This document shows positions 12,111-47,003 of a DNA stretch of 64,000 nucleotides, one piece after another. The notes beneath the pieces are model-generated. The model was not told the origin of the DNA, did not search any database, and worked only from the letters and a program-made list of their open reading frames with translations. Position numbers and translations under genes: made by a program. Source of the DNA: Gracilaria domingensis (lineage: Eukaryota; Rhodophyta; Florideophyceae; Gracilariales; Gracilariaceae); contig VCMS01000273.1 in the NCBI GenBank assembly GCA_022539475.1, positions 79,824-143,823 of the forward strand, written 5' to 3'. How positions within the stretch are numbered: the first letter of the stretch is position 1; every line of letters starts with the position of its first letter.

Positions 12111-14055
12111 ATGGCGCCGAGCCAAGAGAATATAAGTGTAGCGCTCCCCGGTCCTCCGGTATGTCCTTCTCCTTCTCCCGTCAACGACGTGCTCCCTGCT
12201 TCCGCAGACCTCGTACCTTCTCAGAGTACCGTACGCGCTCTCGCTACTGCGGTCAACTTTTCTCCGACACCGGGACTAGACCTCACGATGAGTGGGCCTC
12301 CTCCGAACCAGCCTCCCAACCAACCATCGTTCCCCAAGGGGGCTTCACCGGATTCCGATCCGTTCCACTCCCTCAACAAGGCTCCAACCCGTCCGCGGGG
12401 CAACAGAACAACGCCGCTGGGTACTCTGCGCAGCATGCCGCTCTCGCGGGGCCCGTTGTCGGCTTCCACCCAGGTGTGACCTGGCCATCCTTCAACTCCC
12501 TTGTAGGGCTCCATCCGGCGAACCGGCGACATGCAAGACGTCTCCGGCTCGCGCCGTGGTTCCACCCGACTGCGGTGTTCAATGAAAGCCTCATTACTGA
12601 GTATGCCGATGGGCGCTACACCCTTCCGGGGGACCTCCCAGCGATGGTCACCATTTCGTGGGATTGGCGTACGCGAATCGCCATCCCTGTTCATCAGGTC
12701 GCAAGAGAGAACCGGAAATCTCGGGAAGAGGCTCACGCGAACTTCGTATCGGTGGCCTACAAACGGCAAGGCCGGGCGCCCTTCGAGTTCCTAATACCAC
12801 CTGGGATAGACTTTGACGTGGCCTCTTACCGCACCCGCGGGGAAATTAGTTACTGCGACCGCTTAGCGGTGCTGGAAACCTGCGCCTGGCGAGGCATGCC
12901 CGTGGCACGGCAGGAAGCCATGTGCTGGACACGACCGATTCTTCGGGCTGAGTTTCGCTTTCTACCGCGCCGCTCGCGGTCCAACTTCCTTCAGAACTTC
13001 ATTCGCCATGAGAGGCGCTCTCGATCCCAACTTGGGTATTTTGCTCCGTATCAGAACGTTGAAATCCTCCACATGGCGGCGGCGCACCGGCAGGGTCGGT
13101 ATGTGCCTCTACCAGAGTGGTGGAGCTACCTCGAGGCGTGCCGGGGGTGCTACATCGAGTTGCCCTTGGTATTCACCTACTTAGGGTTGTACCTGCTCAC
13201 GGATCCCAGAACTGGGTTGTGGTCGGTTGTCGTCACCGAGTGGGCTGCCCGCACCGCGGAATTTATCCTCGCAGAGGCATACGACCAGTATCTGCTGTGT
13301 TTCATTCCTCCCCGCGTGCGGGCGGCCATCCGAAGTTTGGACTTGGAAGTCCCCCTCGGGGGTCGTGCAAAAAACGACGAGGTGTTGAGGCTTCTCGATT
13401 ATATCGATAGTGTCGCCTTGACCGAAGTGCCTCTGTTTCAGAGTAGTCGTGGAGATTCCCCGAACACGGGTGGGTACGGCGCAGGTCTGGGAACAAATAC
13501 CGCTCTTGCGGGCGATTTTGTCTTCTTCGACCCGTGGGATTATCGGGAGATTACCGCTGAGAAAGCGGGTGAGCTCGGTTCTGCTCCCCGGCGCGTGCCG
13601 GCCGATCACCCGACTGGGTTCGTGAACTCTGATGAGTATTACCGAGAGTACCTCGGGGGAGATCCAATGGTGGACAATCAGCCCGAGGACACGGGAGGCG
13701 ACGACATCGAAATGGTCGAAGAAGTCGACGCAACCCTTGCGGGGAGAACGCCGGCTTTGCTCGTGTTGTCGTCTCTGCCTCGGCGGCTGACTTCGTCGCT
13801 CCCGCTCCGATTACCATTCCGGTACCCACACCGGCTCAAATTCCTGTTCAGCCGGCTCTTCCCGCTGTTGCGGATGCTGCAGCTCCTCCCTTGCCAACGG
13901 GTTTGAACGAAGGTGCGATCATCGCTCGCTTCCTTCGCGGCGCGGGTTTGGGTGCTAGTGTGGCCTCTGGCGACGTCACCGCTATGGCGGATGCCTTGGC
14001 TCAACGCCTTGGCGGTATGCCTTCTCAGGATGAGGGCGATGGCGGCAGCCAGTAA
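12111..14055 (+). pseudogene. Antisense ORF of element A, novel conserved family
   Basis: This gene lies on the strand opposite gag-pol, between the chromodomain and the 3' LTR. The ATG at 12111 opens a Pro/Ser/Asn-rich leader. A one-base shift near 12330, at a C/A/G run, leads into the main frame (ATG at 12161, to 13906). A second shift near 13740, at a GGGG run, leads into an Ala/Pro-rich linker and a conserved C-terminus ending in TAA at 14053-14055. The core matches the antisense proteins of B and C over some 400 residues: LAPWFHP, YADGRYTLPG, SYRTRGEISY, CWTRPILRAEFRFLP, GRYVPLPEWW, CRGCYIELP, TEWAARTA, IPPRVRAAIRSLDL, GDFVFFDPW and HPTGF. No known domain is recognised and there are no membrane segments. 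I cannot assign a function. Two frameshifts make this copy non-functional as written. Confidence 0.75.
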
Positions 14056-14438
14056 TTGGGAGCCGAGCTTCCCCATGCGTGGGTAATTACCTGTTCACAG
14101 TAGTATAGCCTTGAGATAAAAGATCCTTTGCTTCATACTCGTCTTCGACGGTGTCCTTCTTCCTTACCGGCACAGCCGGCCAATGCGATGCGATGCGTCG
14201 CGAAAGACGCACCCTTTCTAGGGGAAAAACCATGCTCATGGCGTGGCCGTGATGGCGTTACCAGCGAGCTGGATGAAAAATCCTCAGGCATGAGCCTTCT
14301 TTCCGAAAATCGGTGTTCTCACGGCGCGAGCCGGTCGAACCGTCAATGCGGCGGACATCCCACCAAGGTGACATGTGGTCAATTCCCGTCGCACGACGTG
14401 TGTTACCAATATGATGTCCATGCGTTTCCACGGCAACC

Positions 14439-14978
14439 TTATCTAACTTGGGCATCTTCCAGCGTCGCTGGTGTGGCCGTTCCCGCGTTGCGGTGGTACT
14501 GTACGACCTTCGAGCACGGTACGTGCTCGATTGGTTCGTCAGTATCCCACGATGGACCATAGCCGTACCAACGGACGTGGTATTGCAAAATACCCTTCTG
14601 GTCCCAGGAGTGCCCGATAATTCGGTCGACGATGTACTCTTGAACGTACACCTGCCGGCCTTGCCGTGTTAGGGTTACTTCATCGGCTGACAACCCTTGC
14701 GGGGGAGTGGTTCCCGTACCGGGGGTAACAGCGTGCGCCTGGCTCAGCGTGGCCAGTTCCCTGCGTGGAGGAGCGTTTGATATCTCGGTGCGTACTGCCA
14801 GTTGGCGTGGGTCCTTCCGCTTCGGCGGTGTTGGGGGAGCGGCATGCTCGCCTTGTCCGCTTGCGGCGGGAGGCTCCACCTCGGGTGGATTTACAACCGT
14901 GCGTGCACGTGATTGTAGCGACGGTTGGCTGTCAAGCTCCTTCGGGAGAACCGCCTTCCTGTTACAGGTGTCCTCCAA
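14439..14978 (-). pseudogene. pol: Element A pol C-terminal region with chromodomain
   Basis: A disordered Pro-rich stretch is followed by a chromodomain, YIVDRIIGHSWDQKG then YHVRWYGYGPSWDTDEPIEH, with the expected aromatic positions and the WYGY / SWDTDEP strand-helix pattern. Chromodomains at the end of Gypsy integrases direct insertion by recognising methylated histone H3 tails. This region belongs to the pol polyprotein but is detached from integrase by frame changes. The same domain ends A2 (near 35.0 kb) and C (near 44.7 kb). Confidence 0.8.
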
Positions 14979-15031
14979 CGGCTGCGCCGTTGGCCATTGA
15001 GCTTCTTTGCTCGAATTTCAGTTCTGAACGG

Positions 15032-16973: not shown

Positions 16974-18861
16974 AACTTGTGGGTGTGACTCGACAGTCCT
17001 TACGAGGTAGCTGATGTCGTTGACCTCGAATGGGAGGGTGGCTCCACCGTTAAGTCGGGCACGGATCGTGATGCAGAACGGGTTTCAATGTTGCTCTCGG
17101 ATCATTTCTTCCGATGATACCGGTACAAAATTTCCCGGTAGGGGCTTTACAGCCTCGGCTTTGCCTGCAACAAGCAGTTCATCGAACTCAGCGTCCATAT
17201 CGTCCCAGTTATCTGGCCAGTCGTCAAGCCGGCACCCGGGGGTTCCGGCTCATCACCGTCCATGACGAAGCAAGGAATATCATCGTCCTCGACGACCAGA
17301 GTTTCCCCATTCGTGGGTAAGCGCGACAGCGCGTCCTCCTGGGTGTTCAGGGTTCCCTTTTTGTATACGGCGTCGAAGTCGAATTCCGCTAGGCGGAGCG
17401 TCCACCGCATAAGGCGACCTGATGGGTCAGAGATATTCATCAACCACCTCAACGAGGAATGATCCGTGTACACGGTGAAGTGCACACCTAGCAGGTAGGG
17501 ACGGAGGGTGGATAATGCCCATACGACTGCAAGGCACTTTTCTCCGAAACGGAGTAGTTCCGTTCATGAACGTTAAGCGAACGTGATCAGTACCCTATGG
17601 GTTTTCGTTCTCCCTCGGGAGTGGTTTGGAACAGCGCGCAGCCTACTTGGTAGTCGCTCGAGTCCGTGTACACGAAGAACGGCAATCCCGGTTTTGGTAG
17701 AGATAGGATCGGTGCTGATGTAACAGCCTCCTTTAAGGAGATGAACGCTTTCGCTTGTGCGGGCGTGAAGGGGTCCAGTTTTGGTGGCTGACTTTTCGCA
17801 GGAGAGCGTTGAGGGGAGCCGCAATGTCCGAAAAGTTCGGTACAAACCGTGTGTAGACGTTGACCAGCCCTAGGAAGGAGCGTAATTCCGTTTGAGTTCG
17901 CGGTTCCTTCGCCTTGGCGAGTGACTTGACGCCGGCGTCCTCGATCGTCAGCCGTCCTGGACGGATAATGTGTCCAAGGTACTTGACGGTGTCGGTGAAC
18001 AATTCACACTTCCTCAGCTTGAAGGTTATTCCTGCATCACGCGGAGTGGTCATCACGTCCCTGACATGGGTGAGATGATCGTCCAAATTACTGGGAAACA
18101 CAATCATATCGTCAAGGTAGACGAGACAGGTCCGCCCCTTGAAGCGGCTCAACAAGATGTCGATGGCACGCTGGAACGTAGCGGGCGCGTTGATTAGGCC
18201 GAAAGGCATCCGCTTGAAGCGGTAGGAGCCCGAGTGGCACACGAACGCAGTCTTATCGGGGTCTTCCTCCCTGACGGGGACTAGCCAGTATCCCCAATTG
18301 GCATCCAATGCCGTGAACACGGTAGCGTCACCGAGCGAATCGATACACGCGTCCATACGAGGGATTGGGTAAGCGTCTCTTACCGTCACGGCGTTGAGCC
18401 GGCGATAGTCGACACAGAACCTCCAGGTTCTGTCGGCCTTGAGAGCCAGTACCACTGGAGATGCCCACGGCGATTGCGCGTGTTCGATGACACCTGCGCG
18501 GAGCATCTTGTTCACTTGGAACTGTTCCTCTTCCCGAGCTTTCGGTCCTGCCCTGTAAGGGGGTTGTGAAACCGGACGCGTGTTCAGTAACAAATCGATA
18601 CGGTGTTCCGTTGCATTTATCTCTCCAAGAGAGCCATCCCACATTGGAGTAAACTCCCGTAACATGTCTCTTAGACGTTCACGGTGGGACTCTGGTACAT
18701 GACCGAGATCAAGTTCCTCGAGCGCCTTCAGGGGTCAACCTTGTCGTAGCTCGTGGGTTTACGCTCTTCTGTCCCTGACACAGGGTGGGGTTCCGAGTCA
18801 CTCGGTTTCTTCTCCGTTGCGACGGTATTGGTACCCGCGAAACCGGCTGGAATTGCGACTC

Positions 18862-19871: not shown

Positions 19872-22063
19872 TGAACTTCCGCCTGCGGCGGCTGGTCAGG
19901 TTCCTCGGCAACGAGTGCTTCGGCTCGCTGGCCGCCGGGTCCCGCGTTAGCGGTATGGGGTTCGGCAACAGGCCGAGGTTTTGGATGCACAGGTGGTGCT
20001 TGGACATTCCGCTGCGGCGGCGGTGCTGCAACGGCGTGATAGAAATCCGTCTTCGCACGCAAGTACGACGTCATAGGGACGGTTTTCTTCTCCTCTTTAG
20101 TCAAAGCGTCATAGTTCACCGTGACCATGGGCATATCTCTCATCGAGAGGAGGCACTGCGGCGAGATGTGACCATGCGTATAGCAAAGGTGACAGATCGG
20201 CGTCGCCATTCTTGAACGCGGGGTACCATTCCGAGAATCGGTGAACCCTACTCTAGGGCGGGTGTCCTTCCATCCAAGCCGTTGGAAACGGGTTGCTCCG
20301 TTCGCATACGGAATCCTTGGCTCGTTCACACGGTTGGAATCTGCGTAAAGCAGCGTACCGTCCCGAGCGGTATTGAAAGAAGCATCCGTCGTCGACGAGA
20401 GTTCCGTAGTTGGAATGGAACTCAGATTTCCTGGGCCAACTGGACGTTGTCATACTCCTTTGGGGGGGCCTCGCTCGCTAGCAGCGACAAAGATGGGGAT
20501 CTAGTCTCCATCATCAAGGCCTTGGCGGACTTCGACCTGGGAACAGGACCTCGTGCACGGAGTGCATCACCTTCCGCTCGAGCGTACTGGACTAGCTCGA
20601 GGTAGGTAATCTTCCGCTTATCCTCGCGGTAGCGGGCGACCAAGGTCTTGATGGCCGGGTCGAGGCCGTCGACAAACATCGTACAACGTTCCCCTGCGAG
20701 GTAGACATTACCACAACGGTGGAAAGCCTTGTTCAGGGGTACCGAATAATCGGTTTCCGTCTCTCCAGACTTCTGCCGGGTGTACCGGAGCGCTAGGATG
20801 GCCGTGCCGATTGCATCGTTGGTGGCGTACGAGCGCAGCAAGTACTGGACCGCTTTCGGCCAGCACGTAACCCCTCCTTCGGAGGCACGAGATGAGCCTC
20901 TTACAGAGTTGAACTTGTCTTCGGCCACTCCCCGTAAGAAGTACGGTAACGCAATGTAGGCCTGGCCTTCGTTCATTCCGAGAACATCGTCTTCCGCCAC
21001 GAAACGGGCGAGAAAATCAAGCACCAGGACTGGGTCGTCTCCAGAAAATGTCTGGTTACGCAGTGAGAGCTGCATACGGCGGATGCAGTCCTTCACCTTA
21101 CCCGTCCCACGGGGTATGCGATCCAATGAGGAATCCTCTAAACGGTAGTACTGGTACGAAAGTAACTTCCGATACATCGGGTTCGTCTGCTTCAGCTCCT
21201 TCAGCCCGGAGTGTTTCCGTCCCTTCGACCAGGTACGAACAACACCTTGGGTGGCCGATGACCGCTTAGAGCGTGATGAGTGCCCTGCACGACCATCGTC
21301 GGATGAGGAATCGGATGAATCCGAACTACCCGGAACATCCGGTGCGTCGTCTGATGAACTCGAGTCCGAGTCGGAGTACTGATTGTGCTCCTTGAACTTC
21401 CGCATGCGGCGAGATTTGTTCCGACCGGTGTTCTTGTCGCGATGCGACACTTCAACCGGCTCCGCCGGAGTGGCGAGTTCCGCGATAGCGGTCTTCTCCA
21501 ACGTTTCCAGACGGCTTCGAATCCGATCGAATTGGGTCTCAATTCCTTCCACGAAGGCAGCGGGTCCTCCAATGCATTCCAGCACGGAGTTGACATCGGA
21601 CCGTAGGATACTGAGATCCTCTGCGACATCCTTCACAGGGAATGTGCGAACTTCCTCCCGAAGCGTCCGGACTTTCCCCGCGAGGGAATCATGGGCTCCC
21701 ATAAGGGAATTGTGAGCAGCTCGCAACATGCGAACCTGCTCTTCCAGGGTTGTACCCAGAGGGTTGTCAAACTTCTCCCGACGGGAGTGAGGCGCCTCTG
21801 CGGTAGCCTTGACCTGCCCGGCAGGAGCCGCTTCGGCGACGGCGGATGCCGGAGCAATCCCTTCAGTGGGAGGGATTAACGGGGAAACAAGGAAGTGTCC
21901 GGCGCGCCGGTGGGATAGACGTCCGCGAAAACGGCCTGTTACCCAGGGTCGATCCAGGGCGAACTGGTATACTCGAAAGAGGCCGACCATCCGTCAGATT
22001 ACCACCGTTGATGGAACGACTGCGGGTGATCGCAGGCTCTGCATCGGAGGGCTTCCGAGACAT
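19862..22063 (-). pseudogene. gag: Element A Gag, frameshifted
   Basis: The ATG at 22063 (MSRKPSDAEPAITRS) opens the frame. A shift near 21880 leads into the main frame, which runs to 20422. It shows a coiled-coil-prone region (RMLRAAHNSLMGAHDSL), an acidic serine-rich stretch (DSDSSSSDDAPD) and the capsid-like part (SYQYYRLEDSS, LDFLARFVAEDDVLGM, DTDYSVPLNKAFHRCG, MFVDGLDPAIKTLVA). After a further shift near 20420 the tail to 19862 contains the zinc knuckle CHLCYTHGHISPQC (CX2CX4HX4C), which binds packaged RNA. It ends ...GGAAACTGA at the presumed frameshift site into protease. It is inactive because of two frameshifts. Confidence 0.8.
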
Positions 22064-22150
22064 CGGTATCAAATCCAACCGTTACACGGAGACTTCCAGA
22101 AGAAAACGAACCTCAAAGAGGGTACACAAAAGTGCGTCAAACTTCCTGTC

Positions 22151-22168: not shown

Positions 22169-22171
22169 TTT

Positions 22172-22595
22172 TGTAGTGCAATGCCTGCAAGCAGGAAACA
22201 CCACGAAGATGTTCGGAATCTTCTTCTATTGAGGGCAACCCAGTGAACAGAGCCTCTCTGGAATGGCACAACTAGCCGGGTGTAAGACCATGGCCAAACC
22301 GTCAAGACGAGGCGTTGAGAGTTGAGTTGGGAAGGGTGACTCACGCTCGAGTGTAGCAGCCTCGAAAGAAGGACGAGACCACAGAGTGGGGAAAGGGAAA
22401 GAGAGAGAGAAGAGAGAGAGAAGTAAGAGAGGTGCGGCGTATCGCCGGGGTGTCCCCTATACAAAGTCGAACACAAACAACAGAGGTGAAGCACTCCCAA
22501 AGTTAGGTTCTGCAGGGTTACAGGGTGGATAGCCGCACCGTTACAACGGGGAGTCTCTCCGATAAGGAGTTGTGCACCGCCGAAGGCGAAAGTGG
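22172..22595 (-). repeat. Element A 5' LTR, truncated to 424 bp
   Basis: Matches 11326 onward from TGTAGTGCAATGC to GCGAAAGTGG, then stops abruptly where the LTR of element B begins. The missing part is the outer U3 portion. The break is best explained by insertion of B into this LTR, with AGTGG (22591-22595) the likely target-site copy. Confidence 0.85.
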
Positions 22596-23411
22596 TGTTG
22601 TGCAAAACCCAGCGATGGGGAAAGACACGCAAAGGCGGTTCAGACCCTCTCTCAAGAGGCGAGCACAGCAGTAGAGCGCTCCCACAGGTACGACACGGCA
22701 ATGCCGGGTGTAAGACCGGGGTCGACCCTTCCCAAGTAATGGAGGGAGCGAAGCGGCGAAGAAGAAGCGTCCAGCGGTAGAGAACACACGACACAAGTCG
22801 GCAGTAGCGTCACGTGCGTAGCACGCGGTACCCACGAGTGTGGCGATGACACGCGAGAGCGGTAATAGCCCACGCGAGTGTGTCGAGCCACGAACGGTAT
22901 GCACCGGTACACCAAGTAGTGCTACCTGTATAACAGGGACAGAAATAAAGAAAACACACACAAAGTAAACACGCGAAAGCGGTAGTGGTGTTAATGATGC
23001 CGCGAGGCGGATGATGAGCCCTGCACAAGGTGCCGACTCTCCGGGAGGAGGATATCGGTCACCAAGGGTGAAACATCAGAGCCGAACACTCGGTTGGTTC
23101 GTTTACTTCCCCGACAATGGGTGCAGCTCAACCTACTAAGTAGTGTAGAGTGCCAACCCACTGTCAAGCGGTGTAGCGAAAATATCTAGAATAAACATCT
23201 AAAATACCCCAACTAATGGGTGCAAACTTCCCACACGTGTGTGACCCACCGGCTAAGCCGTGCGCCTCATAACACTAATTCTAATATTAAGTATACCCAA
23301 GAATGGGCTGATCTCACCAGTTACTCATACTGTGTGCCACCACCTCCCGGCATCGCCGTGCATGTTATGAATCGCATCAGCGAAGGAGTCCCGCAATCGC
23401 GTTCCACTACA
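22596..23411 (-). repeat. Element B 3' LTR (816 bp)
   Basis: Starts TGTTGTGCAA and ends CCACTACA, so it has TG/CA ends with a short imperfect inverted repeat. No second copy is visible in the window. On its left it directly abuts element A's broken LTR, and on its right a polypurine tract. Boundaries are inferred from these junctions. Confidence 0.7.
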
Positions 23412-23425
23412 TTTCCCCCTCCTTA
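23412..23425 (-). promoter_or_regulatory. Element B polypurine tract
   Basis: Minus strand TAAGGAGGGGGAAA directly abuts the LTR end, nearly identical to the tract of element A. Confidence 0.75.
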
Positions 23426-27359: not shown

Positions 27360-27362
27360 AAG

Positions 27363-35288: not shown

Positions 35289-36262
35289 TATAGAGCAACG
35301 CAATTTGCGTGGTTATCAGGATGATGCGCCTCATATACTCAGGGGAGTGATACGAGGATGCACTCGAAGAGTTATGAGTTGGACCCAATTTTGGCGGTTA
35401 CTTTTGGAATGGCTTTCCCACAGTTACCTGTAATCAGGGTTGCCATTGCTGGCCAATACCGCTAGGTGGACGCGTGTACTACACCACCGTGTGTGTGCAT
35501 ATTACGGGACAATAGGTAGTGCACCTGAGGTGCCTGACACTGGGCTAGCCACGTGTACGGACCCCTGCGGGTGTGCACCACGTGTACATAGTTAGTTTAG
35601 ACCTACTTAGGTGAGCTCGACCTCGTCGTCGCGAGCACCTTTGTAAAGTCAACCCGAGCACTTCTAAGTGAACTCTTTGTCTAGTAGCGCTCTCCTGAGT
35701 GGACTCTTCACGAGTGAGGTTCTGGCGCCAACCGCCTACGTGGGTTATCACTCTCGCGAGTATAGCCACGTCTGGTTACGGTGGTCCTACCCTCTCGGTA
35801 CCTTTGAGGAACATCTGTCGTTGATGTCGGGACCTGAGGGTCGTACCAAGGAGGTATAGGACTAGATTACGAAGTGATCCGACTCTGTATAGAGTTTTGC
35901 CGTGTTTACGGAAACCCGTGCATTACCGTTGGAGGATCTCGCCCCGCTCCGGGCACAGTGCCGAGGAGGCCCTACCCGTCGCGTGTGGGTGTTGTTTGGT
36001 TGTTGTTTTCTGTTGCTTTCCCTCTCGGGACTACACCTGTCGTTGGTCGTGTTTCATCGTTGCCGATACCACCCCATCTCAGGAGTTTCTCATCGTTTCC
36101 TCACGACGTGGCCTAGCACCTCTGTAGGTATAGCCAGTTGCCACTTCGGCCTTACAACCGAGTTACGGTGGTACAGAGGGCTCTGTCACTGGTGTGCCAT
36201 CTCTCACGAGAGCGGACCTTCGGACAGTCTGGTGGGTTTCACTCTTCCGAGTTTGCCCCACA
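35289..36262 (+). repeat. Element C 5' LTR (974 bp)
   Basis: Matches the 3' LTR from TATAGAGCAACGC (TGTAGAGC in the 3' copy) through GGCGCCAAC, and ends CCCCACA just before the PBS. It is full of short hairpin-like words such as CACTTCTAAGTG and CTCTCGCGAG. The U5 end shares a GGCTCTGT-CACTGG phrase with the A family. Confidence 0.85.
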
Positions 36263-36265
36263 AAG

Positions 36266-36283
36266 TGGTCTCCCGACTTAGAA
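36266..36283 (+). promoter_or_regulatory. Element C primer binding site
   Basis: TGGTCTCCCGACTTAGAA, three bases after the LTR, identical to A2. Confidence 0.75.
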
Positions 36284-36506: not shown

Positions 36507-38576
36507 ATGCCGCAACCGCCTCGAGGTTCTCGAGCTGGTTCCGCGCGGTCGTCAGCTGCGGTTCCACCCGTTGCATCGACGTCCCGGTCTATCTCAGATG
36601 AGGCGTAACCTCTTGAGGTCGTACCCCGCCCCCGGAGAACGCGTTCAGTTACGGAAGCACCCAAGGGAAATGTGGGTTCTGCTCAACCCGTCGTTGAGAC
36701 ACCATCCATGGTTAATCCTAACGCTGCTACCGTAGCCGAGTTGGCTAGGTTGGAATCCCGCTTGGATATTAATCACGCTGCTCACGTGGAACTCCTACAG
36801 GATGTTACCTCGTTGAGGACGCAGGTTGATAATGCCCAGGTGAGGGATGTCTCAGGAGACTTACGTCTTCTGAGAAGGGACGTGAATTCCATTATGGAAA
36901 ATCTGGGTACCCCAGACGTCTTCGTCACGGAGTACCGGGCATTTGTCGAGGAAATGCGCATCGATATCTGTCGAATTCGTTCGCGCTTGGAAACGCTGGA
37001 GGATACAATCCGTATGGATGAAGCTGTGGACGCACAGGCTCCTCAAGGAAATCCATCTGCGGATGAAGACCATCGTTCGGTGAAGCAGAAACGTCGACAC
37101 CCAAAACGAGTTCACTATGATTCGGATTCATCGCGCTCTGACTCGAGCGGCATGACTGAAGACAGTTCATCAGATTCATCTGATAGTGATGACAACCGTC
37201 ATAGGTCACGTTCGACACGGTCGAAAGCGACGCAGTCTACTCAGGCAGTGATGAGATCACGCGTGAAAGGACGGCGCCACTTGGGACTCAAAGAGTTAAA
37301 GCCGACGGACCCGCTCTACACAAAGCTGTTGTCATACCGCTATTATCGGTTGGAAGATGTTACTTCGAATCGCTCCTCGCAAGGAACCGGTAAGGTGAAG
37401 GACTACATTCGAAGGTTGAATGTTACCCTTGAAACAAGGACGTTCTCGGGGACAGATCCTATCCTTATCTTGGATTTCCTTGCCAGGTTCGTCCAGGAGG
37501 CCGATATACTCGGTATGAGTGAAGCACAGGCACATGTGGCACTGCCGTACTTCCTAACAGGGACTGCGGAAGATCAGTACAACTCAGTTCGAGGAACCTC
37601 GAGAGCCTCGGAAGGAGGAGTCACGTGTTGGCCGGAAGCCGTGAACTACCTTCTCAGGTCGTACGCGACTTCCAACGCGATTTACAGCGCTACTCTTGCT
37701 GTTCGCGACACTAGACAGAAGAGTGGAGAATCTGAAACGGTTTATTCAACGCGGTTGAACAAAGCGTTTCACCGATGTGGTAATGTGTATTCCGCACAGG
37801 AGCGGTGTACCATGTTTGTTGATGGTTTGGACCCCACCATTCGGTCGTTGGTCGCTCGCCGACGCGAGGAAAAACGCCGAATGACGTACCTAGAGTTGGT
37901 TAATTACGCCCAGGCGGAAGGAGAGACGTATCGAGCCCGCAACCCGGGGCAGCGCCGCTCGAAAGCGCTACTCACGGAAAGTTCGTCACGATCGATGTCG
38001 GTTTTGCGACGTGAAACCGCTGTCGGTGATGCTGATAACGCCCACTTCATCGGAAGTAACCACGATTCTTACGGATCTATGGACCTGCCGTCAACCTCGA
38101 TTCCGAGCACGGAAGAAGACCCCGCATTGTATGCCCAAGGTGTCCGGGTGCCTGCAGCCCCGCTGCCTTACGCTAACAATTCGTCGCGTCTGAACCGTCC
38201 AGGGTGGAAGGACACAGCACCACAACGTCGAGTGGACAATCGCCCTCGCGACAAACCGGCCCCGGTCATATGTTACCAGTGCTACCTTCCAGGTCACGTA
38301 TCGACGCAGTGCGTATTTCCGCCGTCGCACAGGCCGAAAATTATTGCGTATTACGACGCCCTCACGCCCGAGGAAAAGGAATCTGTTCCACGAAAGGAAT
38401 ATGATAAGGCCAGAGCTGAACTGGGATTACCGGTTCCGGTTTATGCTCAGCCCTCCGTTCCGGCACAGGCACCTTCGAACCAGGTTCAAGGCGAAGTACC
38501 CACGCATGGGGTTCAGTTAGGCCCCCCGAACGGAGTCCACGCACCGAATTCGGTGAGCCCCGTTCAGAAAAACTGA
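36507..38576 (+). pseudogene. gag: Element C Gag with one in-frame stop
   Basis: ATG 36507 (MPQPPRGSRAGSARSS) opens the frame. A TAA at 36606-36608 interrupts it, and the same frame then runs unbroken to the TGA at 38574. No other ATG lies between the stop and the main body except an internal one near 36708. The protein has a coiled-coil-prone part (about 36730-36990), an acidic Ser/Asp tract, a capsid-like part (SYRYYRLEDV, LDFLARFVQEADILGM, TRLNKAFHRCGNVY, MFVDGLDPTIRSLVA) and the zinc knuckle CYQCYLPGHVSTQC (CX2CX4HX4C). Gag forms the virus-like particle and packages element RNA. Apart from the early stop it looks functional. Confidence 0.85.
38565..38576 (+). promoter_or_regulatory. Gag-pro -1 frameshift site, element C
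   Basis: CAGAAAAACTGA: the gag stop directly follows AAA AAC. The -1 frame is open across it into protease. G AAA AAC differs only in its first base from the slippery heptamer A AAA AAC. Confidence 0.5.
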
Positions 38577-41500
38577 CTTCGGGAGTTTCCCCTACGGGAG
38601 GGGCGCCTTCCGAGCCAAAGTTGAAGGCGCCCGAGGCGTCACAGCTTCGCTCCCCAGCTGTTAGAATCCTTTCAAGGATAGCGGCTACAACTGACGTGAG
38701 CTCAGAACACCTTTCGGTTCTACGTCGTCCGTGGATACGGTCCCGTAATCTCCGTATTCCGGAAAGAGCTCTTGTGATGGCCAAGAGAAACTACAAAGTT
38801 TATGCCGATCTTGGCTTGTCTAACCAGTTCATGGTTCGACAGTTGTCTATGTTGGATACAGGAGCTGCACCAAACCTGATTCACCTTGAGTTGGTGCCAC
38901 CCGCGCTACGCGATGAAATTCGTCATGGCCCAGGTTTGGACATCGCGGATGCCAACAATAACCCGTTGCGTACTCTTGGGTACATACCTCTCATGGTACG
39001 ATTAGGAACCTGTATGGTTGAAGTGGATTTCATGGTTTGCAAAAGCATTGCCGCACCGGTGATACTCGGTTGTGACTTTTGTGATCGTTTTGTTGAAGCG
39101 ATTCGACCTCGAGCTCGAGTTGTTACCATGGATGATAGTTCCGAAATACCGATTGTAAGAAAACCGCTAAAGAGAGCTACACGCAAGCGCGTCCCGCTCC
39201 CTGCTGCACAGGAAGTTCCAACCGTCGACCCGGTATCATCTAAGCCCCATGTGGCTCATGCCATCGCAATCCCTGCGCAATCCCAAGTTTGGGTCACCAT
39301 AACTACTAAGCAGTCTGGTCTACGTGTGGTACAACCATTGCCATCATTGTATGATCAGAAGCAACTCGCTTTAGCGAACGGAGTAATCTCGGTGGAACCC
39401 GACAAACCATTCAGAGTTTTGGTCGCCAACTTTGGCACAACCCGACAGTGGTTAGCTAAAAACCAAATCCTTGGTACTACTCTCCCACACCCTGCTGCTA
39501 TCGTACCGAAGAAGATACCCGTTGCGGATGTTCTCGGTATAACCGATGCTAAGGAGGGGGAGGGATCAGCGGAAACCGCTTTTACCGCATCGGTTACCCC
39601 GGCGAGCCAAGTCACCGAATCGCTGGCACCCACCGAGGGTAAAGCGTTGCCACCAGGAACGGAAAATACAGACCCTGTCAAGGAACTGGAACAGTTGAAT
39701 TTTGATCATGTACCTGAATCTCATAGAGGTAAGCTAAGAGAAATGTTGAGGGAGTTCACACCCATGTGGGATGGATCCCTCGGGACAATTGGAATCACGG
39801 AGCACCGTATTGACCTACTTCCAGGTACTAGCCCCATTTCCCAACACCCATACCGGGCTGGTCCCAAAGCTAGGGAAGAAGAGAAATCTCAGGTTGAGAA
39901 GATGTTACGCGCTGGCGTCATAGAGGCGGCTCAATCCGCTTAGGCCTCACCCGTGGTGCTAGTTCCAGAAGCGGACGGATCATGGCGATTCTGTATTGAT
40001 TACCGTCGTCTAAATTCGGTCACCGTCAAAGACGTTTATCCCATACCCAGGATGGACGAATACATTGACTCGCTTGGGAGTGCTACAGTGTTCACCGCCT
40101 TGGATGCCAATTGGGGATACTGGCAAGTTCCGATCCATGAAAAGGATAAGGACAAAACTGCTTTTGTGTGCCACCAAGGTTTGTACGGGTTTAAACGAAT
40201 GCCGTTCGGATTAACCAACGCACCGGCTACGTTTCAACGTGCTATCGATATCCTCTTGGCTCGATTCAAGTGGAAGACCTGCTTGGTGTATCTTGACGAT
40301 ATCATCGTGTTCTCCGATAACCTTGATGACCACTTAACACACGTCCGGGACGTCATGAGAGTCCTCAGGGACGCAGGCATTACGCTGAAACTCAAGAAGT
40401 GCGAGTTCTTCACAGATTCTGTCAAATACCTAGGGCATATCATTCGACCTGGACAGCTCTCAGTTGACGCAGTTCGCGTGAAGTCGCTGAAGGAAGCGAA
40501 AGACCCCACGACACAAACGGAACTCCGCAGTTTTCTGGGTCTTTGTAATGTATATCGGCGTTTTGTCCCGAACTTCGCAGATATTGCGACCCCTCTTTAC
40601 CACCTTTTGAGGAAAGGTCAACCAGTTCAACTGGAACCCCTAGGCGACGCGGAAGCGTCTGACTTTTCGGCATTAATCGACGCAGTAACTTCACCGCCAA
40701 TCTTGGCTTTGCCTAAGCTAGGACTTCCATTCGAAGTAGACAGTGACGCCAGTGCACACCAGGTTGGTTGCGCCCTGTTTCAGGTCACGGAAGACGGCGT
40801 GAGACATCCAATGGGATACTGGTCGCGATCCTTGAACGTACACGAACGTAACTACTCAGTTTCGGAGAAAGAGTGCTTAGCCGTTGTATGGGCTCTAACT
40901 ACACTGAGGCCATATCTTATGGGCAACCATTTTACGGTACATACGGACCACTCATCTCTCCGATGGCTCATGGAAATCTCGGAACCATCAGGACGCTTGA
41001 TGCGTTGGCGCTTGAGGTTATCGGAATTCGATTTCACAGTTACGTACAAAAAAGGAACGTTGAATCTGCAGGCAGATGCACTCTCCCGCTTGGGAACAAA
41101 TGCAGAAGCGGCACCAGTTGACGATCTGGACATACCATGCTTTATGGTGGAAGAACAAGCAGGTTGGGTCGAATCTTTGTCGGATGACATCTGTGACGAC
41201 ATCCTGCTCACTTCTGAGAAGTTGGATCCCTTGACTGGATCTTTTGTACCCATCACTCCCGAGGAGATGATCCGAGAACAGCAAACGGATGAGTTTTGTA
41301 CGCGAATTCGCGCTCTTCTCAATGGAGGAGATCGTATACCTTTTCAGGTTAACGATCAGGGGTACCTGGTTAGGTTGGTTGAAGCGTATACCCAAATTGT
41401 GGTCCCATACTCGCTGCAAAACCGTGTGTTGGTCATGACACACTATGTGAAGGTAGGAGCCCACCCAGGAGGTCGAAAACTATACTTGACCCTGCGTAGG

Positions 41501-41911
41501 GATTTTTACTGGCCGTCAATGGCATTGGACTGCTACGCAGTACGACGCTATTGCACCGAGTGCGCTAAGAATAACGTGAAACTTCGTAAGTACGCGAAGA
41601 AGTTAACGCTGTTCCCAGCACGGTCTCCTTTGGAGTTTATCGCTACCGATATCTTAGGTGAATTGATCAGAACCGCAAGAGGTAATCGATACCTTCTGGT
41701 TATCACCGATCGGTTCTCTAAGTTGGTACGGACAGTCCCGCTGAAACTGATTACGGCCACCGTGGTTGCACAAGCTTTTGTCACCCACTGAGTCTTTGTG
41801 TACGGTCCACCGGTTCATCTTTTATCAGATAACGGTTCACAGTTCACGTCGAAGTTTTTCCAGGACGTCTGTCGGATCTTGAGTGTAAAGAATCTATTTA
41901 CGACCACCTAC
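38573..41911 (+). pseudogene. pol: Element C protease, RT, RNase H and integrase N-half, two nonsense codons
   Basis: The frame is -1 to gag. The protease has SMLDTGAAPN (DTG intact) and APVILGCDFCDRF. A TAG at 39941-39943 sits where A and A2 have Trp in QSPWASPVVL. RT follows: RFCIDYRRLNSVTV, NWGYWQVPI, RMPFGLTNAPATFQ and CLVYLDDIIVF. RNase H follows (DASAHQVGCALF, YSVSEKECLAVVWAL, HTDHSSLRWL). The integrase has its zinc-binding His/Cys region, EFIATDILGEL (first Asp), a TGA at 41789-41791 in place of the Trp of THWIFVYGPP, then LLSDNGSQF (second Asp). The frame is cut at TTTYHP by the insertion at 41912. Apart from the two stops the domains are complete. Confidence 0.9.
39550..39564 (+). 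promoter_or_regulatory. Internal polypurine-tract-like motif 1, element C
   Basis: TAAGGAGGGGGAGGG, encoding KEGEG between protease and RT. Confidence 0.55.
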
Positions 41912-42715
41912 CACCCCATCTCTAGAGTTTCTCATCGTTTCCTCACGACGTGGCCTAGCACCTCTGTAGGTATAGCCAGTTGCCACTTCGGCCTTACAAC
42001 CGAGTTACGGTGGTACAGAGGGCTCTGTCACTGCTCTGCCATCTCTCACGAGAGCGGACCTTCGGACAGTCTGGTGGGTTTCACTCTTCCGAGTTTGCCC
42101 CACAAAGTGGTCTCCCGACCTAGAGCTCCTGTGGGTTGGAATGTTCCGACTCAAGCGAGTGTTCCGGTGGTGGGTCCGGCCCCTGTAGCGGCTACCGTTC
42201 CTTCGGTCCTTCCGCCCCCGACAGCTCCGGTCGCTCCGGGAGATTCTCCGGCGAACATCGCGATGTTGCGCGCCAGTCTCCAGAACGCTGGAATTATCGT
42301 GCCCGATCATCTCACCACTATGGCAGGGATACTGGCTTACGCCGTTCCGCACCCTTCGCAGGGTCCCTCCGGTAGCGGCGGTGCCGGTCCCTCATCGGGG
42401 GTGTAAGATGACCAGCAGGGCTGGAGGACTTGGTCCTTAGTATAAGATAGAAACAGTAAAACCATCTAGTGGTAACTTTCCCTTCACCCTTTTGCCTGTT
42501 CTCCACGAACTTGATCGATCTTCGATTACTTCTTCACTCACACTGTGTTCAAGTGTACTTCACTTCCCTGGTGCTTCACTTCTTTGGTGCTTCTTCTACT
42601 CTAACCGTTTTAAATCGGTACAACCGGCATTTCGGTATGCTCTTCTTTCTTTCTTCTCACTTCCTCTAGTTCAGTCTTCACCGCTTCATTGGTCTTCTTC
42701 CTTCATTCATCCCCC
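41912..42715 (+). mobile_element. Scrambled Gypsy-derived insertion in element C integrase
   Basis: About 0.8 kb interrupts pol between TTYHP and NGQVER. It consists of: a U5-side LTR fragment like 36064-36262; a PBS at 42108-42124 with one change; then, without gag, the last part of an antisense ORF and its 3' flank in the orientation opposite to that in element C (a reversed match to about 44840-45425). The LTR part is similar but not identical to C's own LTR, so it came from another copy. The left junction lies in TACCACCCCA, which occurs in both pol and LTR. The right junction lies in a CCCC-CA run. Confidence 0.75.
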
Positions 42716-43827
42716 AAACAAATGGTCAGGTAGAACGATTTAACCGTACCATGCTAAATGCATTAAGATCTTATGTGGCAGATCATCCTAAGGATTGGGA
42801 TTTGTATATGGACGCTATTACGTATGCGTACAACACCCAAGTCCACCGGGTAACGAAGCTAGCACCTTTTGAGTTGGTACTGTCAAGAGTACCGCCACCG
42901 GTTGCAATCGAGGCTCAAGAAACGCTTTCTACGTACCCGTCTGTTGGGTTATACAGGAACGCTTGGAAGGATTGGTTAACCAAAATGGTACCGGTCGCTC
43001 GCACAGCGATGGATAAGGCGCAGGCCGCTTATAAGCGCAACTTCGATGCGAAGGTTAAGAACCCATTACCAAAGGTCAAACCAGACGATATGGTATTTCT
43101 CCGCAAAGAATACTATAATCTGGAGAAGGAACGCCGCCACAAGCTCTCGCCTATCGCGGAAGGACCCTACAAGGTTATTTCCGTCACGGACGATACCGTA
43201 GTATTGGATATCAATAATCTCCACGAACGGATATCGTTAGACCGTGTCGCGCTGGCCCCACCACCCTACGTTCACGTTAACACCCAACTGGGTGAAGCTA
43301 CAGGGGACGAACAGGTCGTATCTTCGCGCCCTGCGACTCTCCGACCTGATCGCGGCTTATCGGATCTACCGAAGTCAGAATCACCCACGCGGGTAGCACA
43401 ACCCGTTGCGGGAGACGAAGAGGAAAACTCAACTAGAGTTGACCCCCCACCGGACGTCGTGGCTCCCGTGCCACCGCCTAAGGAGGGGGAGGAAAGTGCG
43501 GAACCCGTTAAACCGGCGTCGCACGGTCACACTGTGTCGCAAGGTACCGCAACCAATCTCGCGGTCTCTACCGATAGCGTTGTGGTGCGCCGAGGCGCTG
43601 TACCTCGTGGTGATACTCCGTCGAGTTCGTTGAGCAATGCGCTGGAAACGACACGACCCACCCAGGGGGTACACACCGCTGTGGATAACGTAACCCCGTC
43701 GGGAACACCACAACTGAGTGAGGTCACCACCCGCGGAGCGGAGAAGACAGTATCTGTAGACCCGGGCTTTCCGGAGAACGCAGAACCGCAAGCGGTAGAT
43801 CAGCTCAATGTTACCGACCGGTGTTAA
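42716..43827 (+). pseudogene. pol: Element C integrase C-half and tail
   Basis: Resumes at QTNGQVERFNRTML with the catalytic Glu, then SYVADHPKDWDLYMDA and AYNTQVHRV. The GPY/F module follows (SPIAEGPYKVISV), then a Pro-rich tail with TAA at 43825-43827. The second internal polypurine motif is at 43479-43492. Joined to the N-half it would complete the DDE triad, but the insertion separates them. Confidence 0.85.
43479..43492 (+). promoter_or_regulatory. Internal polypurine-tract-like motif 2, element C
   Basis: TAAGGAGGGGGAGG, encoding KEGEE, identical over its core to the 3' polypurine tract of the A family. Confidence 0.55.
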
Positions 43828-44763
43828 CCACGCCGTGGTATGAGGAAACGAGAAGTCGTACTTACCCGCGTATTATTTGGGAAAACAACCTTGGAAAGGT
43901 GAAGTACGAAGTACGAGTTTGGAAACCGTCGATGGTGCACCCACGCCACGTGGCAGAGGACTCATGACACACCCAAGTGGAGAGTAACACGTTGTGTGAC
44001 GTGGTGACGTATGGAAAGCACCGCCGACGGGGGGAACTCCTGACAGTAAGTCGCGTGCGCGAGTACCACACGTGCACGGTGCACGATGTACGGTCGCCAA
44101 CCGTAGGCGAACGGAAACCTGTTAGGGTAGCTCGTGGCTCACACGTGCCATCGCCTGGCCAACCAGAAGGCCGCGATATGCACCGTGATTGGTCAATCCG
44201 CCTCCATGGCGCACGAGCGAGACCCTGCCCGTTCTCCGTCGCACGGACGATCCTTCTGGATAGCAAGAGGGAGCTCAGAATCCCGAAGCTACCGTTGGAC
44301 GGTCGGAAGCCCAACCAAGACGAGCCGAAGCTCGTCAGACTCAAGAAGGAGAGTACTTCAAGAAGAACCTTTCAGGTTGAAGATTGGACGCTCCTGTCGT
44401 ATGTTGTAGTTGTCGGGCAGCGAGGAACTCCTAGTGAGTCGTGACTGGTTAAGTCTAAGAGGAACCCCTCTAGAGGTTAGCCGGCCACCACCTCGCCACC
44501 CTCGAAGGTACGAAACCACAATGGGTGAAGGAGAGCAGTCAAACACCGAGGTGTACCCGCAGGAATACGTGATCGAACGTATCGTACGTCATGTTGTAGA
44601 CCCCGATGGGACGGTACTGTACCAAGTGCAATGTTATGGCTACTCCGCCGAGGAGGACACCATGGAGCCGGTCGAGCACCTACCTAGGTCGAAGATCGTT
44701 TCATACCACCGTCGACCTCGGTCAGCCTTGCCGTCCAACCTGGACCAAGCCCAGGTGGGATAA
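43828..44763 (+). pseudogene. pol: Element C chromodomain region
   Basis: 43828-44409 is disrupted linker with stops in every frame. From ATG 44521 (in the same frame as integrase) a short frame encodes YVIERIVRHVVDPDG, YQVQCYGYSAEEDTMEPVEH and HLPRSKIVSYHRR, a chromodomain in which the usual core Trp of VRWYGY is Cys. It ends in TAA at 44761-44763. This may weaken the aromatic cage. Confidence 0.7.
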
Positions 44764-45149
44764 GAACCGTTCCCGGTGAGGAGCTTTCAACTATACCGCG
44801 ATGCAGAAGACTCAGAATGGAGAGTTGACCCCTTCTGTGTGGGGGATGAATGAAGGAAGAAGACCAATGAAGCGGTGAAGACTGAACTAGAGGAAGTGAG
44901 AAGAAAGAAAGAAGAGCATACCGAATTGCCGGTTGTACCGATTTAAAACGGTTGGAGTAGAAGAAGCACCAAAGAAGTGAAGCACCAGGGAAGTGAAGTA
45001 CACTTGAACACAGTGTGAGTGAAGAAGTAATCGAAGATCGATCAAGTTCGTGGAGAACAGGCAAAAGGGTGAAGGGAAAGTTACCACTAGATGGTTTTAC
45101 TGTTTCTATCTTATACTAAGGACCAAGTCCTCCAGCCCTGCTGGTCATC

Positions 45150-47003
45150 TTACACCCCCGATGAGGGACCGGCACCGCCGCTACCGGAGGGACCCTGCGA
45201 AGGGTGCGGAACGGCGTAAGTCAGTATCCCTGCCATAGTGGTGAGATGATCGGGCACGATAATTCCAGCGTTCTGGAGACTGGCGCGCAACATCGCGATG
45301 TTCGCCGGAGAATCTCCCGGAGCGACCGGAGCTGTCGGGGGCGGAAGGACCGAAGGAACGGTAGCCGCTACAGGGGCCGGACCCACCACCGGAACACTCG
45401 CTTGAGTCGGAACATTCCAACCCACAGGAGCCTGGGGTACCCCGCCGCTGGCGTGCAACACCTGATTCACCGCCGGTAGGTCGTTCACCAACTCCTGGTC
45501 CATCTCGACGAGTGCGGCCGCCGCCTCTCCACCAGTATCCATGTTCGGATCATCCAGATCGACTGGGGCCACCCAGGTGTCACTGAACATGAACCCAACG
45601 GGGTGACTCTCTGGAATCGACCGTGGCTGGTTCGCTGCCCACTCTGCATACGCACTAGTCGTCATCGTACCCTCCCATGGGTCGTAATACACGAAATCTC
45701 CTGCAGTGGGATGTCTTCTACCGGGTGAGCGGTCGTAGTGACGACGAGGACCTTTCCCGCGTTGCGAACGGGGCACCGTTTCCCAATCGATTCCATCGAG
45801 AACATCCAAGATGTAATGGATCTCATCCACGTTCTCTTCGGACACCAAGGGAGTGTGCAAATTTAGCGAGCGGATAATGCTGCGAAGCATCGGCGTAATA
45901 TACCAAACACGGTAGTTGTCGTAAGCCTCCCAGAGGAGAAACGCTGCTACGCGTGCGGCCCACTCGCCGGCTACGAGAACCCACCATCCTGAACGCGGAT
46001 CGTTGATCAATCGGGAGCCGATGTAACTCAAGCACGGAGGCAGCTCTGCAAAACACCCTTTGGGTACCTCCACATCACGCCACCAATCTGGTAGAGGAGG
46101 GAACCGTCCAACACAGGCCTGCGGTCTGTACCTCTCGGTCTCGATATTCGGATACGGAATCAGATACCCATGAGGGGAACGAGCTTTCCGCTCAAACCGA
46201 ATGCGGTTGACGAACCCACCTTGGGAAGCGTTCTTGCGAAGATAACGGAACTCCGCTCGGAGTATGGGCCGATTCCAGCACAACATCAACCTCAATGTGG
46301 TCGGGCCATCGCCAGCGTACCGCGCATGGTCGAACGCCGCCAAATTTTCTCCATATCGGACTTCACCGAAAGTACGGTAGAACGGAGTATCGAACCCATA
46401 TGACGGTGGAACCAGGTGCTCGAGGTGCACTCGACTGAGTCTCCTGTACGCCAACTTCGCGTGTTCCGCGCGCGCGGTGTTCAGGTTCTCACCCTCGCGG
46501 GTATCGTACCGGAGGAGCATCGGGTCGATCGCTATACGAACTTTCCATTCTGGGGCTTGTACTACCGCTAACGGCAGACCGCCCGGTAGGAAGCCGTTTT
46601 CGGCATACGACTCCAGGAAAGTGTCATCGTTAACAGCTACCGGATGAAACCACGGTGCACGGCTGAACGCAAACCCATCACGGAGTGGATCGCGTACTGC
46701 GAGAGATTCCCTCGATATCCAACCAGCTTGGTTCGCCATCAGCGGCATCGCTTGCGCTGAGTTCCATAACGGAACGTTCACCGGGACCATCGGTTGAGAC
46801 TGAGGCAGTGGAGCCGTCGCAGAACCCGGCTGAGGGTAGTTCGACGCGCTCGCCTGACCCGTCGGGTGATGAGGAAACTGATTCGGCTTCATCGGAATGA
46901 CAGATGATGTACTGTGATCGAGTTCGGATACTTGAATACTCTGTTCGCTTGAGTGTGTATCGCGCTTGCGAGGTATAGAAACCGAGGAGTTGGTACCGCT
47001 CAT
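45150..47003 (-). CDS. Antisense ORF of element C, novel conserved family (intact)
   Basis: Start chosen at ATG 47003; the frame upstream begins only with TTG. It has about 617 residues. After a disordered N-terminus it carries the family core: FSRAPWFHP, YAENGFLPGG, FYRTFGEVRYGENLA, CWNRPILRAEFRYLR, GYLIPYPNIETERYRP, GRFPPLPDWW, KGCFAELPPCLSYIGSRL, GWWVLVAGEWAARVA, YDNYRVWYITPMLRSIIRSL, DRSPGRRHPTAGDFVYYDPW and ESHPVGFMFSD. An acidic stretch and a Pro/Ala/Val-rich tail follow. Its stop lies about 390 bases from the convergent chromodomain stop. It starts 80 bases inside the polypurine tract/3' LTR boundary, on the strand opposite gag-pol. It matches no family I recognise. Survival of an open frame of this length beside a damaged pol is notable. 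Confidence 0.75.
   Translation of the reverse strand: MSGTNSSVSIPRKRDTHSSEQSIQVSELDHSTSSVIPMKPNQFPHHPTGQASASNYPQPGSATAPLPQSQPMVPVNVPLWNSAQAMPLMANQAGWISRESLAVRDPLRDGFAFSRAPWFHPVAVNDDTFLESYAENGFLPGGLPLAVVQAPEWKVRIAIDPMLLRYDTREGENLNTARAEHAKLAYRRLSRVHLEHLVPPSYGFDTPFYRTFGEVRYGENLAAFDHARYAGDGPTTLRLMLCWNRPILRAEFRYLRKNASQGGFVNRIRFERKARSPHGYLIPYPNIETERYRPQACVGRFPPLPDWWRDVEVPKGCFAELPPCLSYIGSRLINDPRSGWWVLVAGEWAARVAAFLLWEAYDNYRVWYITPMLRSIIRSLNLHTPLVSEENVDEIHYILDVLDGIDWETVPRSQRGKGPRRHYDRSPGRRHPTAGDFVYYDPWEGTMTTSAYAEWAANQPRSIPESHPVGFMFSDTWVAPVDLDDPNMDTGGEAAAALVEMDQELVNDLPAVNQVLHASGGVPQAPVGWNVPTQASVPVVGPAPVAATVPSVLPPPTAPVAPGDSPANIAMLRASLQNAGIIVPDHLTTMAGILTYAVPHPSQGPSGSGGAGPSSGV

What the first reader, a model, noticed from the sequence alone, without database searches (positions are those of the whole stretch)
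12111..47003. A conserved antisense gene family carried by three different Gypsy elements
Elements A (12111-14055, plus), B (23491-25536, plus) and C (45150-47003, minus) each carry a large ORF opposite to gag-pol, always between the chromodomain and the polypurine tract/3' LTR. The proteins align across some 400 residues with many invariant blocks (APWFHP, RT-GE--Y, CW-RP-LRAEFR-L, G-Y-PLP, C/K-GC--ELP, HP-GF). The LTRs differ, so the gene has persisted across family divergence. In B and C it is uninterrupted; in C, sense pol has nonsense codons and an insertion. Antisense ORFs between pol and the 3' LTR are known in some plant Gypsy elements and in HTLV-type viruses, but I recognise no homology to these or any domain. 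It could be a silencing antagonist, an envelope-like or second structural protein, or a regulator. Conservation is seen; function is not.
Basis: partly seen in the sequence, partly recalled or inferred. Interest (0 to 1): 0.88.

Follow-up and report, generated by a model that had tools for sequence, protein, structure and literature searches.

The report
Antisense accessory gene of seaweed retrotransposons
Jumping genes in a red seaweed carry an extra gene written backwards at their far end; it looks like a real, selected protein of an undescribed family that has almost no lysine, which suggests it resists or exploits the cell's protein-disposal system.

Summary
Three Ty3/gypsy element families in this window, almost certainly from Gracilaria domingensis, carry a homologous ~580-680-residue ORF antisense to gag-pol. 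Among listed best hits in the genome, 71 of 71 ORF-RT pairs within 8 kb are on opposite strands, 70 convergent. The first ATG lies 80-94 bp from the 3' LTR edge in all three. It is not a chance frame: core piN/piS is 0.19-0.22 among 30 C copies; codon-model omega 0.26-0.34 rejects 1 (p<1e-9); subfamily pairs give dN/dS 0.20-0.30; the other five frames hold 7-28 stops in the copies counted. The N-terminus shows no constraint. Relatives occur in Gracilariopsis chorda and Agarophyton chilense. Pfam, NCBIfam and PDB sequences give nothing; a confident core model (pLDDT 86, pTM 0.87) matches no solved or viral fold by Foldseek. New here: the protein is a lysine desert (0 K in 681 aa in B; 12 of 15 family members meet a published definition, 0 of 5 gag/pol controls). 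It is laid out like plant antisense aORFs (Grande, Retand) but lacks their TRP28 domain and sits in elements with a chromodomain. Transcription and function are untested.

The parts
11324..12067 (-). 3' LTR of element A (744 bp; element runs on the minus strand)
   Evidence: Matches 26621-27361 over 744 columns at 91%; abuts the pyrimidine-rich tract on the plus strand.
12161..13906 (+). Antisense ORF, copy A (decayed at both ends; conserved core open)
14490..14642 (-). Chromodomain-coding sequence of element A
   Evidence: tblastn with the B chromodomain, 67% identity.
17733..18734 (-). Reverse transcriptase fragment of element A
   Evidence: Pfam RVT_1, E 8e-32.
20422..21993 (-). gag frame of element A
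   Evidence: 58% identical to B gag over 457 aligned residues.
22170..22595 (-). 5' LTR of element A, cut short where B begins
   Evidence: 94.8% to 11324-11749.
22596..23411 (-). LTR of element B (3' LTR, 816 bp)
   Evidence: B-type homology begins at 22595/22596 in L003-L008 (in L002 the A-type junction is shared); the LTR pair of another copy is 816 bp.
23412..23425 (-). Polypurine tract of B (pyrimidine-rich on the plus strand)
   Evidence: Sequence; 29 bp around it shared by A (12055-12083) and 5 of 8 B loci.
23491..25536 (+). Antisense ORF, copy B: 681 aa, no lysine
35291..35732 (+). 5' LTR of element C
   Evidence: 98% to 47085-47526.
36609..38576 (+). gag frame of element C
   Evidence: Pfam Retrotrans_gag, E 4e-5.
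38420..41791 (+). pol frames of element C (RT, RNase H, start of integrase; interrupted)
   Evidence: RVT_1 E 5e-38, RT_RNaseH, Integrase_H2C2 in 39944-41791.
44560..44715 (+). Chromodomain-coding sequence of element C, in a short frame beyond the end of pol
   Evidence: tblastn, 60% identity; frame.
45150..47003 (-). Antisense ORF, copy C: 617 aa
   Evidence: purifying selection among copies.
47085..47526 (+). 3' LTR of element C; the ORF's first ATG lies 82 bp from its edge

Best explanation
It is a bona fide third gene of a lineage of red-algal Ty3/gypsy retrotransposons that carry a chromodomain. SHOWN: it lies tail-to-tail with pol and head-on to the 3' LTR; its ~370-residue core is under purifying selection in its own frame; it has persisted through the divergence of families A, B and C and occurs in at least two genera of Gracilariales (three if Agarophyton is kept apart); and it is lysine-poor. 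INFERRED: it is translated from an antisense mRNA that starts in or near the 3' LTR (first ATG 80-94 bp from the LTR edge in all three families). INFERRED: the product has a disordered N-terminal tail, a folded mostly helical core of unrecognised fold, an acidic tail in B and C, and a short C-terminal helical segment. INFERRED and least certain: it works in trans as an accessory factor for transposition, most likely by acting on host control of the element in the nucleus or cytosol. The lysine depletion would let it work next to the ubiquitin machinery, or outlast it, without being tagged itself. My split: selected protein-coding gene 0.95; expressed from an antisense transcript 0.85; trans-acting accessory or regulatory factor 0.65; lysine depletion functionally tied to ubiquitin 0.35.
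For: Orientation: 32 of 32 B and 39 of 39 C ORF hits with a listed RT hit within 8 kb are on the opposite strand, 70 of 71 convergent (I gave it 62 of the 70 B rows, leaving out 8 secondary fragments, and all 67 C rows). Chromodomain antisense downstream of the ORF in 7 of 8 B loci and 29 of 30 C loci; C LTR upstream in 30 of 30 C loci. Selection: 30 C copies piN/piS 0.32 (0.30 without the window copy), core 0.22 (0.19). IQ-TREE MG+F3X4 omega 0.34 (whole) and 0.26 (core), against omega=1 p=9e-10 and 6e-11, on 24 different sequences among the 26 stop-free of the 30 copies. In the core, codon positions 1 and 2 vary at 0.0028 and 0.0065, below the LTR (0.009) and the spacer (0.011); position 3 at 0.016. 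Between subfamilies: A vs L041 0.21, A vs L040 0.20, B vs L042 0.30. Relatives: P0001-P0010 and P0012. Tree: the A-type rows (window A, P0004, L041) join G. chorda P0002 and the unnamed P0001 at 100/100. Lysine: 0 of 681 in B against 11.1 expected from its own base composition by codon position (p 1e-5); L041 2 vs 12.2 (4e-4); C 8 vs 15.0 (0.036); A 5 vs 10.1 (0.06); gag/pol ratios 0.94-1.9. Core model pLDDT 86.3, pTM 0.87.
Against: No RNA or protein evidence was available. Eight B copies are too similar to show selection (piN/piS 1.13 on very few changes). The 30 C copies were the best protein matches to the window copy, which can bias dN down; three C copies picked by RT instead gave whole-ORF ratios 0.78, 1.0 and 0.11 against one copy and a pooled core ratio of 0.33 on 24 changes. 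One reverse frame shares the third positions and shows a low ratio too (0.25), but it has 27-28 stops in the six C copies counted. The pol-tail side varies more (0.0196) than the LTR or the spacer, so the neutral level is not one number. Of seven RT-bearing copies that had no listed ORF match, five carry the ORF broken by indels (in one, part of it is also replaced) and two show none at the expected place, so RT-open copies without a working ORF exist. Lysine depletion is individually weak in A and C, and 3 of 15 family members miss the desert definition. No domain or fold points to a biochemical activity.
Confidence: 0.6

Rival explanations
1. Antisense regulatory or nucleic-acid-binding protein, as proposed for plant Retand/Grande aORFs: it enters the nucleus, binds the LTR or element DNA/RNA and tunes transcription or integration; the lysine depletion is incidental.
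For: Same position and orientation as plant aORF-3R genes, one of which (Grande gene23) is nuclear and has its own promoter (PMC7264820, passages and section 5; PMC11963269, abstract and passages). Arg is 10-11.6% of the core in A, B and C, and four Arg are invariant in the 14 aligned sequences.
Against: No DNA-binding domain in Pfam; core pI 6.5 in A and C, 9.5 in B; lysine is short while arginine is not above expectation in B and C, which general nucleic-acid binding does not predict.
Confidence: 0.3
2. Envelope-like or second structural protein that is packaged in the particle or allows passage between cells.
For: Position between pol and 3' LTR is where env lies in retroviruses; Gracilariales cells are linked by pit connections (recalled).
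Against: Antisense, not sense; maximum 19-residue hydropathy 1.22-1.43, no membrane helix; no relation to gag; no match among predicted viral structures.
Confidence: 0.08
3. The transcript, not the protein, matters: antisense RNA makes dsRNA with the genomic RNA and dampens the element; the open frame is secondary.
For: Any antisense transcript here would pair with the 3' part of the gag-pol RNA; the review PMC7264820 discusses this for plant aORFs (passages).
Against: Selection acts on the amino-acid sequence in this frame: codon positions 1 and 2 of the core are quieter than LTR and spacer while position 3 is not; a pure RNA function does not give omega 0.26.
Confidence: 0.07
4. Chance open frames opposite constrained sense sequence, or frames kept only because copies are young.
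For: B copies differ by too few changes to tell.
Against: In the copies counted no other frame of either strand is open (7-28 stops); 39-45% amino-acid identity between families with dN/dS 0.30-0.36 at near-saturated synonymous sites; relatives in other genera.
Confidence: 0.02

Closest known systems
Plant antisense aORF-3R genes (maize Grande gene23, rice RIRE2, Silene Retand ORF4, Phaseolus PvRetro13)
   Same: Long ORF antisense to gag-pol between pol and the 3' LTR, present in many copies, conserved across related elements, unknown role (PMC7264820 section 5 and passages; PMC11963269 abstract and passages).
   Different: No Pfam match of any kind in A, B or C at E<=1, so no TRP28 (PF04195); host is a red alga; elements carry a chromodomain, while Retand is described as a non-chromovirus lineage; protein is a lysine desert with a confidently modelled core. 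Plant aORF sequences were not aligned directly.
Boty of Botrytis cinerea and Sclerotinia sclerotiorum (antisense aORF in a fungal element)
   Same: Shows the layout is not restricted to plants (named in PMC7264820 section 5).
   Different: Its sequence was not compared here; the hosts are unrelated.
Antisense genes of HTLV-type retroviruses (HBZ, APH-2)
   Same: Antisense coding frame at the 3' end, antisense promoter inside the 3' LTR (PMC11963269 and PMC7264820, passages).
   Different: No bZIP or other Pfam domain; much longer (length of HBZ recalled); no homology shown.
Lysine desert proteins of the ubiquitin-proteasome system (San1, Slx5/8, VHL, SOCS1)
   Same: 12 of 15 family members have a lysine-free run of at least 150 aa or 50% of length (definition from PMC10665810, passages). 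Such deserts are frequent in disordered proteins (start of the abstract of PMC10169902, listing); this protein has long low-confidence tails.
   Different: No RING, F-box, SOCS or other Pfam domain detected; no functional test.

Membership tests
Plant antisense aORF-3R genes (Retand/Grande type) | ORF antisense to gag-pol, between pol and 3' LTR | tested here: met
   71 of 71 listed ORF-RT pairs opposite, 70 convergent; LTR upstream in 30 of 30 C loci.
Plant antisense aORF-3R genes (Retand/Grande type) | TRP28 domain PF04195 (97% of Retand clusters, PMC11963269 abstract) | tested here: not met
   No PF04195 match at E<=1 in A, B, C or in the 14 members of alignment A5.
Plant antisense aORF-3R genes (Retand/Grande type) | Carried by a non-chromovirus lineage (Retand) | tested here: not met
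   Chromodomain in frame at the pol C-terminus in the B copy examined; chromodomain-coding sequence at the same place in A and C, in C in a short separate frame. No RT tree was made.
Plant antisense aORF-3R genes (Retand/Grande type) | Own promoter, nuclear product | not testable with these tools
   Needs RNA and localisation data.
HTLV-type antisense gene (HBZ-like) | bZIP domain | tested here: not met
   No Pfam match.
HTLV-type antisense gene (HBZ-like) | Transcription starts in the 3' LTR | not testable with these tools
   First ATG lies 80-94 bp from the LTR edge; start site unknown.
Retroviral env or env-like ORF | Sense orientation and membrane-spanning helix | tested here: not met
   Antisense; maximum 19-residue hydropathy 1.43.
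Lysine desert protein | Lysine-free run of at least 150 aa or 50% of the length | tested here: met
   12 of 15 family members, including A, B, C; 0 of 5 gag/pol controls. P0006, P0010 and P0012 miss it; several database rows are partial proteins.
Lysine desert protein | Role in, or protection from, ubiquitin tagging | not testable with these tools
   Needs protein work.
Ty3/gypsy element with chromodomain (host element) | LTRs, gag, RT-RNase H before integrase, chromodomain | tested here: met
   in C the chromodomain is outside the long pol frame. Lineage within Ty3/gypsy was not resolved.

The most novel reading that the evidence does not exclude
An LTR retrotransposon lineage has independently evolved the working equivalent of the retroviral accessory proteins that hijack ubiquitin ligases, but encodes it on the opposite strand: a lysine-less adaptor with a new fold, made from a 3'-LTR antisense transcript, that marks a host silencing or restriction factor for destruction while being untaggable itself.
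Probability: 0.12. Interest if true: 0.9.

Novelty: new variant of a known kind. Interest (0 to 1): 0.62.

Why it matters
Antisense genes at the 3' end of LTR elements are reported in flowering plants, fungi and retroviruses, mostly without recognisable relatives and without a known role (PMC7264820, passages). A further case in red algae, with no Pfam-detectable link to the plant TRP28 proteins, suggests that this position is repeatedly filled with an accessory gene. This one adds a measurable selection signal, a confidently modelled core without a known fold, and lysine depletion, which turns 'role unknown' into a concrete question: does it touch the ubiquitin system? G. domingensis, G. chorda and A. 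chilense are living hosts for the tests. It also explains some 'hypothetical proteins' of Gracilariales gene catalogues (P0002, P0004, P0008) as transposon genes.
Full report
WHAT WAS CLAIMED AND WHAT IS THERE. The three open frames exist and encode homologous proteins (A-B 41%, A-C 35%; 39-45% in local alignments). Element C (LTRs 35291-35732 and 47085-47526) runs on the plus strand and carries the ORF on the minus strand. Element A (3' LTR 11324-12067, 5' LTR remnant 22170-22595) runs on the minus strand and carries it on the plus strand. For B the window shows only an LTR (22596-23411) and the ORF before an assembly gap; its gag-pol had to be sought elsewhere. A B copy on another contig has 816-bp LTRs differing at one base, open gag and pol, an in-frame C-terminal chromodomain and the ORF antisense, about 510 bp beyond the end of pol. 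In C the chromodomain lies beyond the long pol frame, in a short frame of 73-117 codons in 29 of 30 loci.

SOURCE. The window lies in a 77.9-Mb, 680-contig assembly. The Gracilaria domingensis protein P0004 sits on a 382,288-bp contig and matches contig C50, also 382,288 bp, at 99% over residues 163-419 and 92% over 1-174. The species genome is given as 78 Mb in PMC10388701 (passages). So the host is almost certainly G. domingensis.

GENOME-WIDE ORIENTATION. Matching the ORF hits with the RT hits, 32 of 62 B rows and 39 of 67 C rows have a listed RT within 8 kb; all 71 are on the opposite strand and 70 convergent. These are best-hit lists, so the unpaired rows say little by themselves. In the held loci the chromodomain lies antisense downstream in 7 of 8 B loci (the window copy has the N gap) and 29 of 30 C loci, and the C LTR upstream in 30 of 30. 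The first ATG is 80 bp (B), 82 bp (C) and 94 bp (A) from the LTR edge.

SELECTION. Thirty C copies: piN/piS 0.324, without the window copy 0.301; core codons 130-520 0.22 and 0.19. In blocks, codons 130-575 give 0.16-0.28, the N-terminal 43-130 about 1 or more on few changes, the last 84 codons 0.66-0.76. Positions 1 and 2 of the core vary less than the LTR (0.009) or the spacer (0.011), position 3 more (0.016); the region on the pol side varies at 0.0196. A codon model on 24 different stop-free sequences gives omega 0.34 and, for the core, 0.26, with p 9e-10 and 6e-11 against 1. Pairs of subfamilies give 0.20-0.30. One reverse frame mirrors the third positions and shows a low ratio but holds 27-28 stops in the six copies counted. 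Limits: the 30 copies were the best protein matches to the window copy; B copies are too young to tell (1.13 on few changes); three C copies chosen by RT and carrying broken frames gave 0.78, 1.0 and 0.11 over the ORF, pooled core 0.33 on 24 changes, a mixture one expects when dead copies drift. Compared with the same elements' other genes the ORF is less conserved (amino-acid identity 39-45%) than gag (50-58%) and RT (73-77%).

RELATIVES. Eleven database proteins belong to the family (P0001-P0010 and P0012). Four are named, from three species: Gracilariopsis chorda (P0002, P0008), G. domingensis (P0004) and Agarophyton chilense (P0007); seven are unnamed. Each search scored only about 8000 candidates, so a wider spread is not excluded. 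In a tree, the A-type rows group with G. chorda P0002 and the unnamed P0001 at 100/100, and window C with the unnamed P0003 at 100/98 (root at the midpoint). So the A lineage seems to have been distinct before the two genera parted, unless elements moved between hosts. No relatives in viral or prokaryote contigs.

LYSINE DESERT. Copy B has no lysine in 681 residues and 51 arginines; 7 of 8 B loci are lysine-free, as is L042 (92% identical). Against the base composition of each codon position, K is 0 vs 11.1 (B), 2 vs 12.2 (L041), 8 vs 15.0 (C), 5 vs 10.1 (A), while gag and pol of the same elements are at 0.94-1.9 of expectation. K is the most depleted residue in A, B and L041 and second in C. 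These four are homologous, so they are not independent tests. By the definition of PMC10665810 (passages: lysine-free run of 150 aa or 50%, met by under 10% of eukaryotic proteins) 12 of 15 family members qualify, 0 of 5 controls; the three that fail are P0006, P0010 and P0012. In B, lysines reappear just upstream of ATG 23491 in the same frame, which supports that start. Lysine deserts are typical of ubiquitin-system parts and are also noted in viral proteins (PMC10169902, passages).

HOW IT MOST LIKELY WORKS. Shown: selected protein frame, antisense, at the 3' end, lysine-poor. Inferred: antisense mRNA from the 3' LTR region. Inferred: accessory factor acting in trans; RT-open copies with a broken ORF exist (5 of 7 examined; 2 more show none at the expected place; the seven were picked because they had no listed ORF match), which fits complementation but also plain decay or assembly error. 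Least certain: contact with the ubiquitin machinery. The main rival is a nucleic-acid-binding regulator as proposed for Retand.

KNOWN AND NEW. [quoted passage not shown] PMC11963269, abstract and passages). The present gene shares the layout but fails two features of the Retand type (TRP28, non-chromovirus host). I therefore file it as a new variant of a known kind, not as a member of that family.

Noticed in passing
22595-22596; L002, L004: The B copy begins inside an A-type LTR, cutting it short; L002 shows the same junction and L004 a different one, so B seems to have inserted into A-type LTRs at least twice among 8 B loci: possible target preference.
   Followed up: partly
43827-44715: In family C the chromodomain sits in a short frame of 73-117 codons beyond the end of the long pol frame in 29 of 30 loci, while in the B copy examined it is fused in frame to pol: splicing, frame change or a separate product.
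   Followed up: partly
41909-42728: Integrase of element C is split by a composite insert: 216 bp copied from the 5' region (36067-36282) joined to an inverted copy of the 3' end of ORF C and its flank (44826-45431), perhaps a scrambled reverse-transcription product.
   Followed up: no
50881-60834: Cluster of unusual genes: SET domain (58286-58966, E 1e-7), DNA-methylase-like C-terminus (55758-57869, E 0.02, DPPYG motif), a frame whose text looks ParB-like to me (52238-54862, no Pfam hit). PMC12477816 (passages) reports ParB plus methyltransferase proteins and giant EnSpm elements with accessory genes in red algae; this may be one.
   Followed up: partly
54981-55162 and 55431-55613: Two near-identical copies in inverted orientation (96%), each with an internal palindrome of about 96 bp, between divergently oriented frames.
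   Followed up: no
9525-11306: hAT-like transposase frame (DUF659 E 0.004, dimerisation region E 0.02, both under the curated cut-offs) next to element A.
   Followed up: no
P0011: A 444-residue unnamed protein resembles the core over 128 columns (hhalign 93.7%, E 2e-7): possible distant relative outside the family as drawn.
   Followed up: partly
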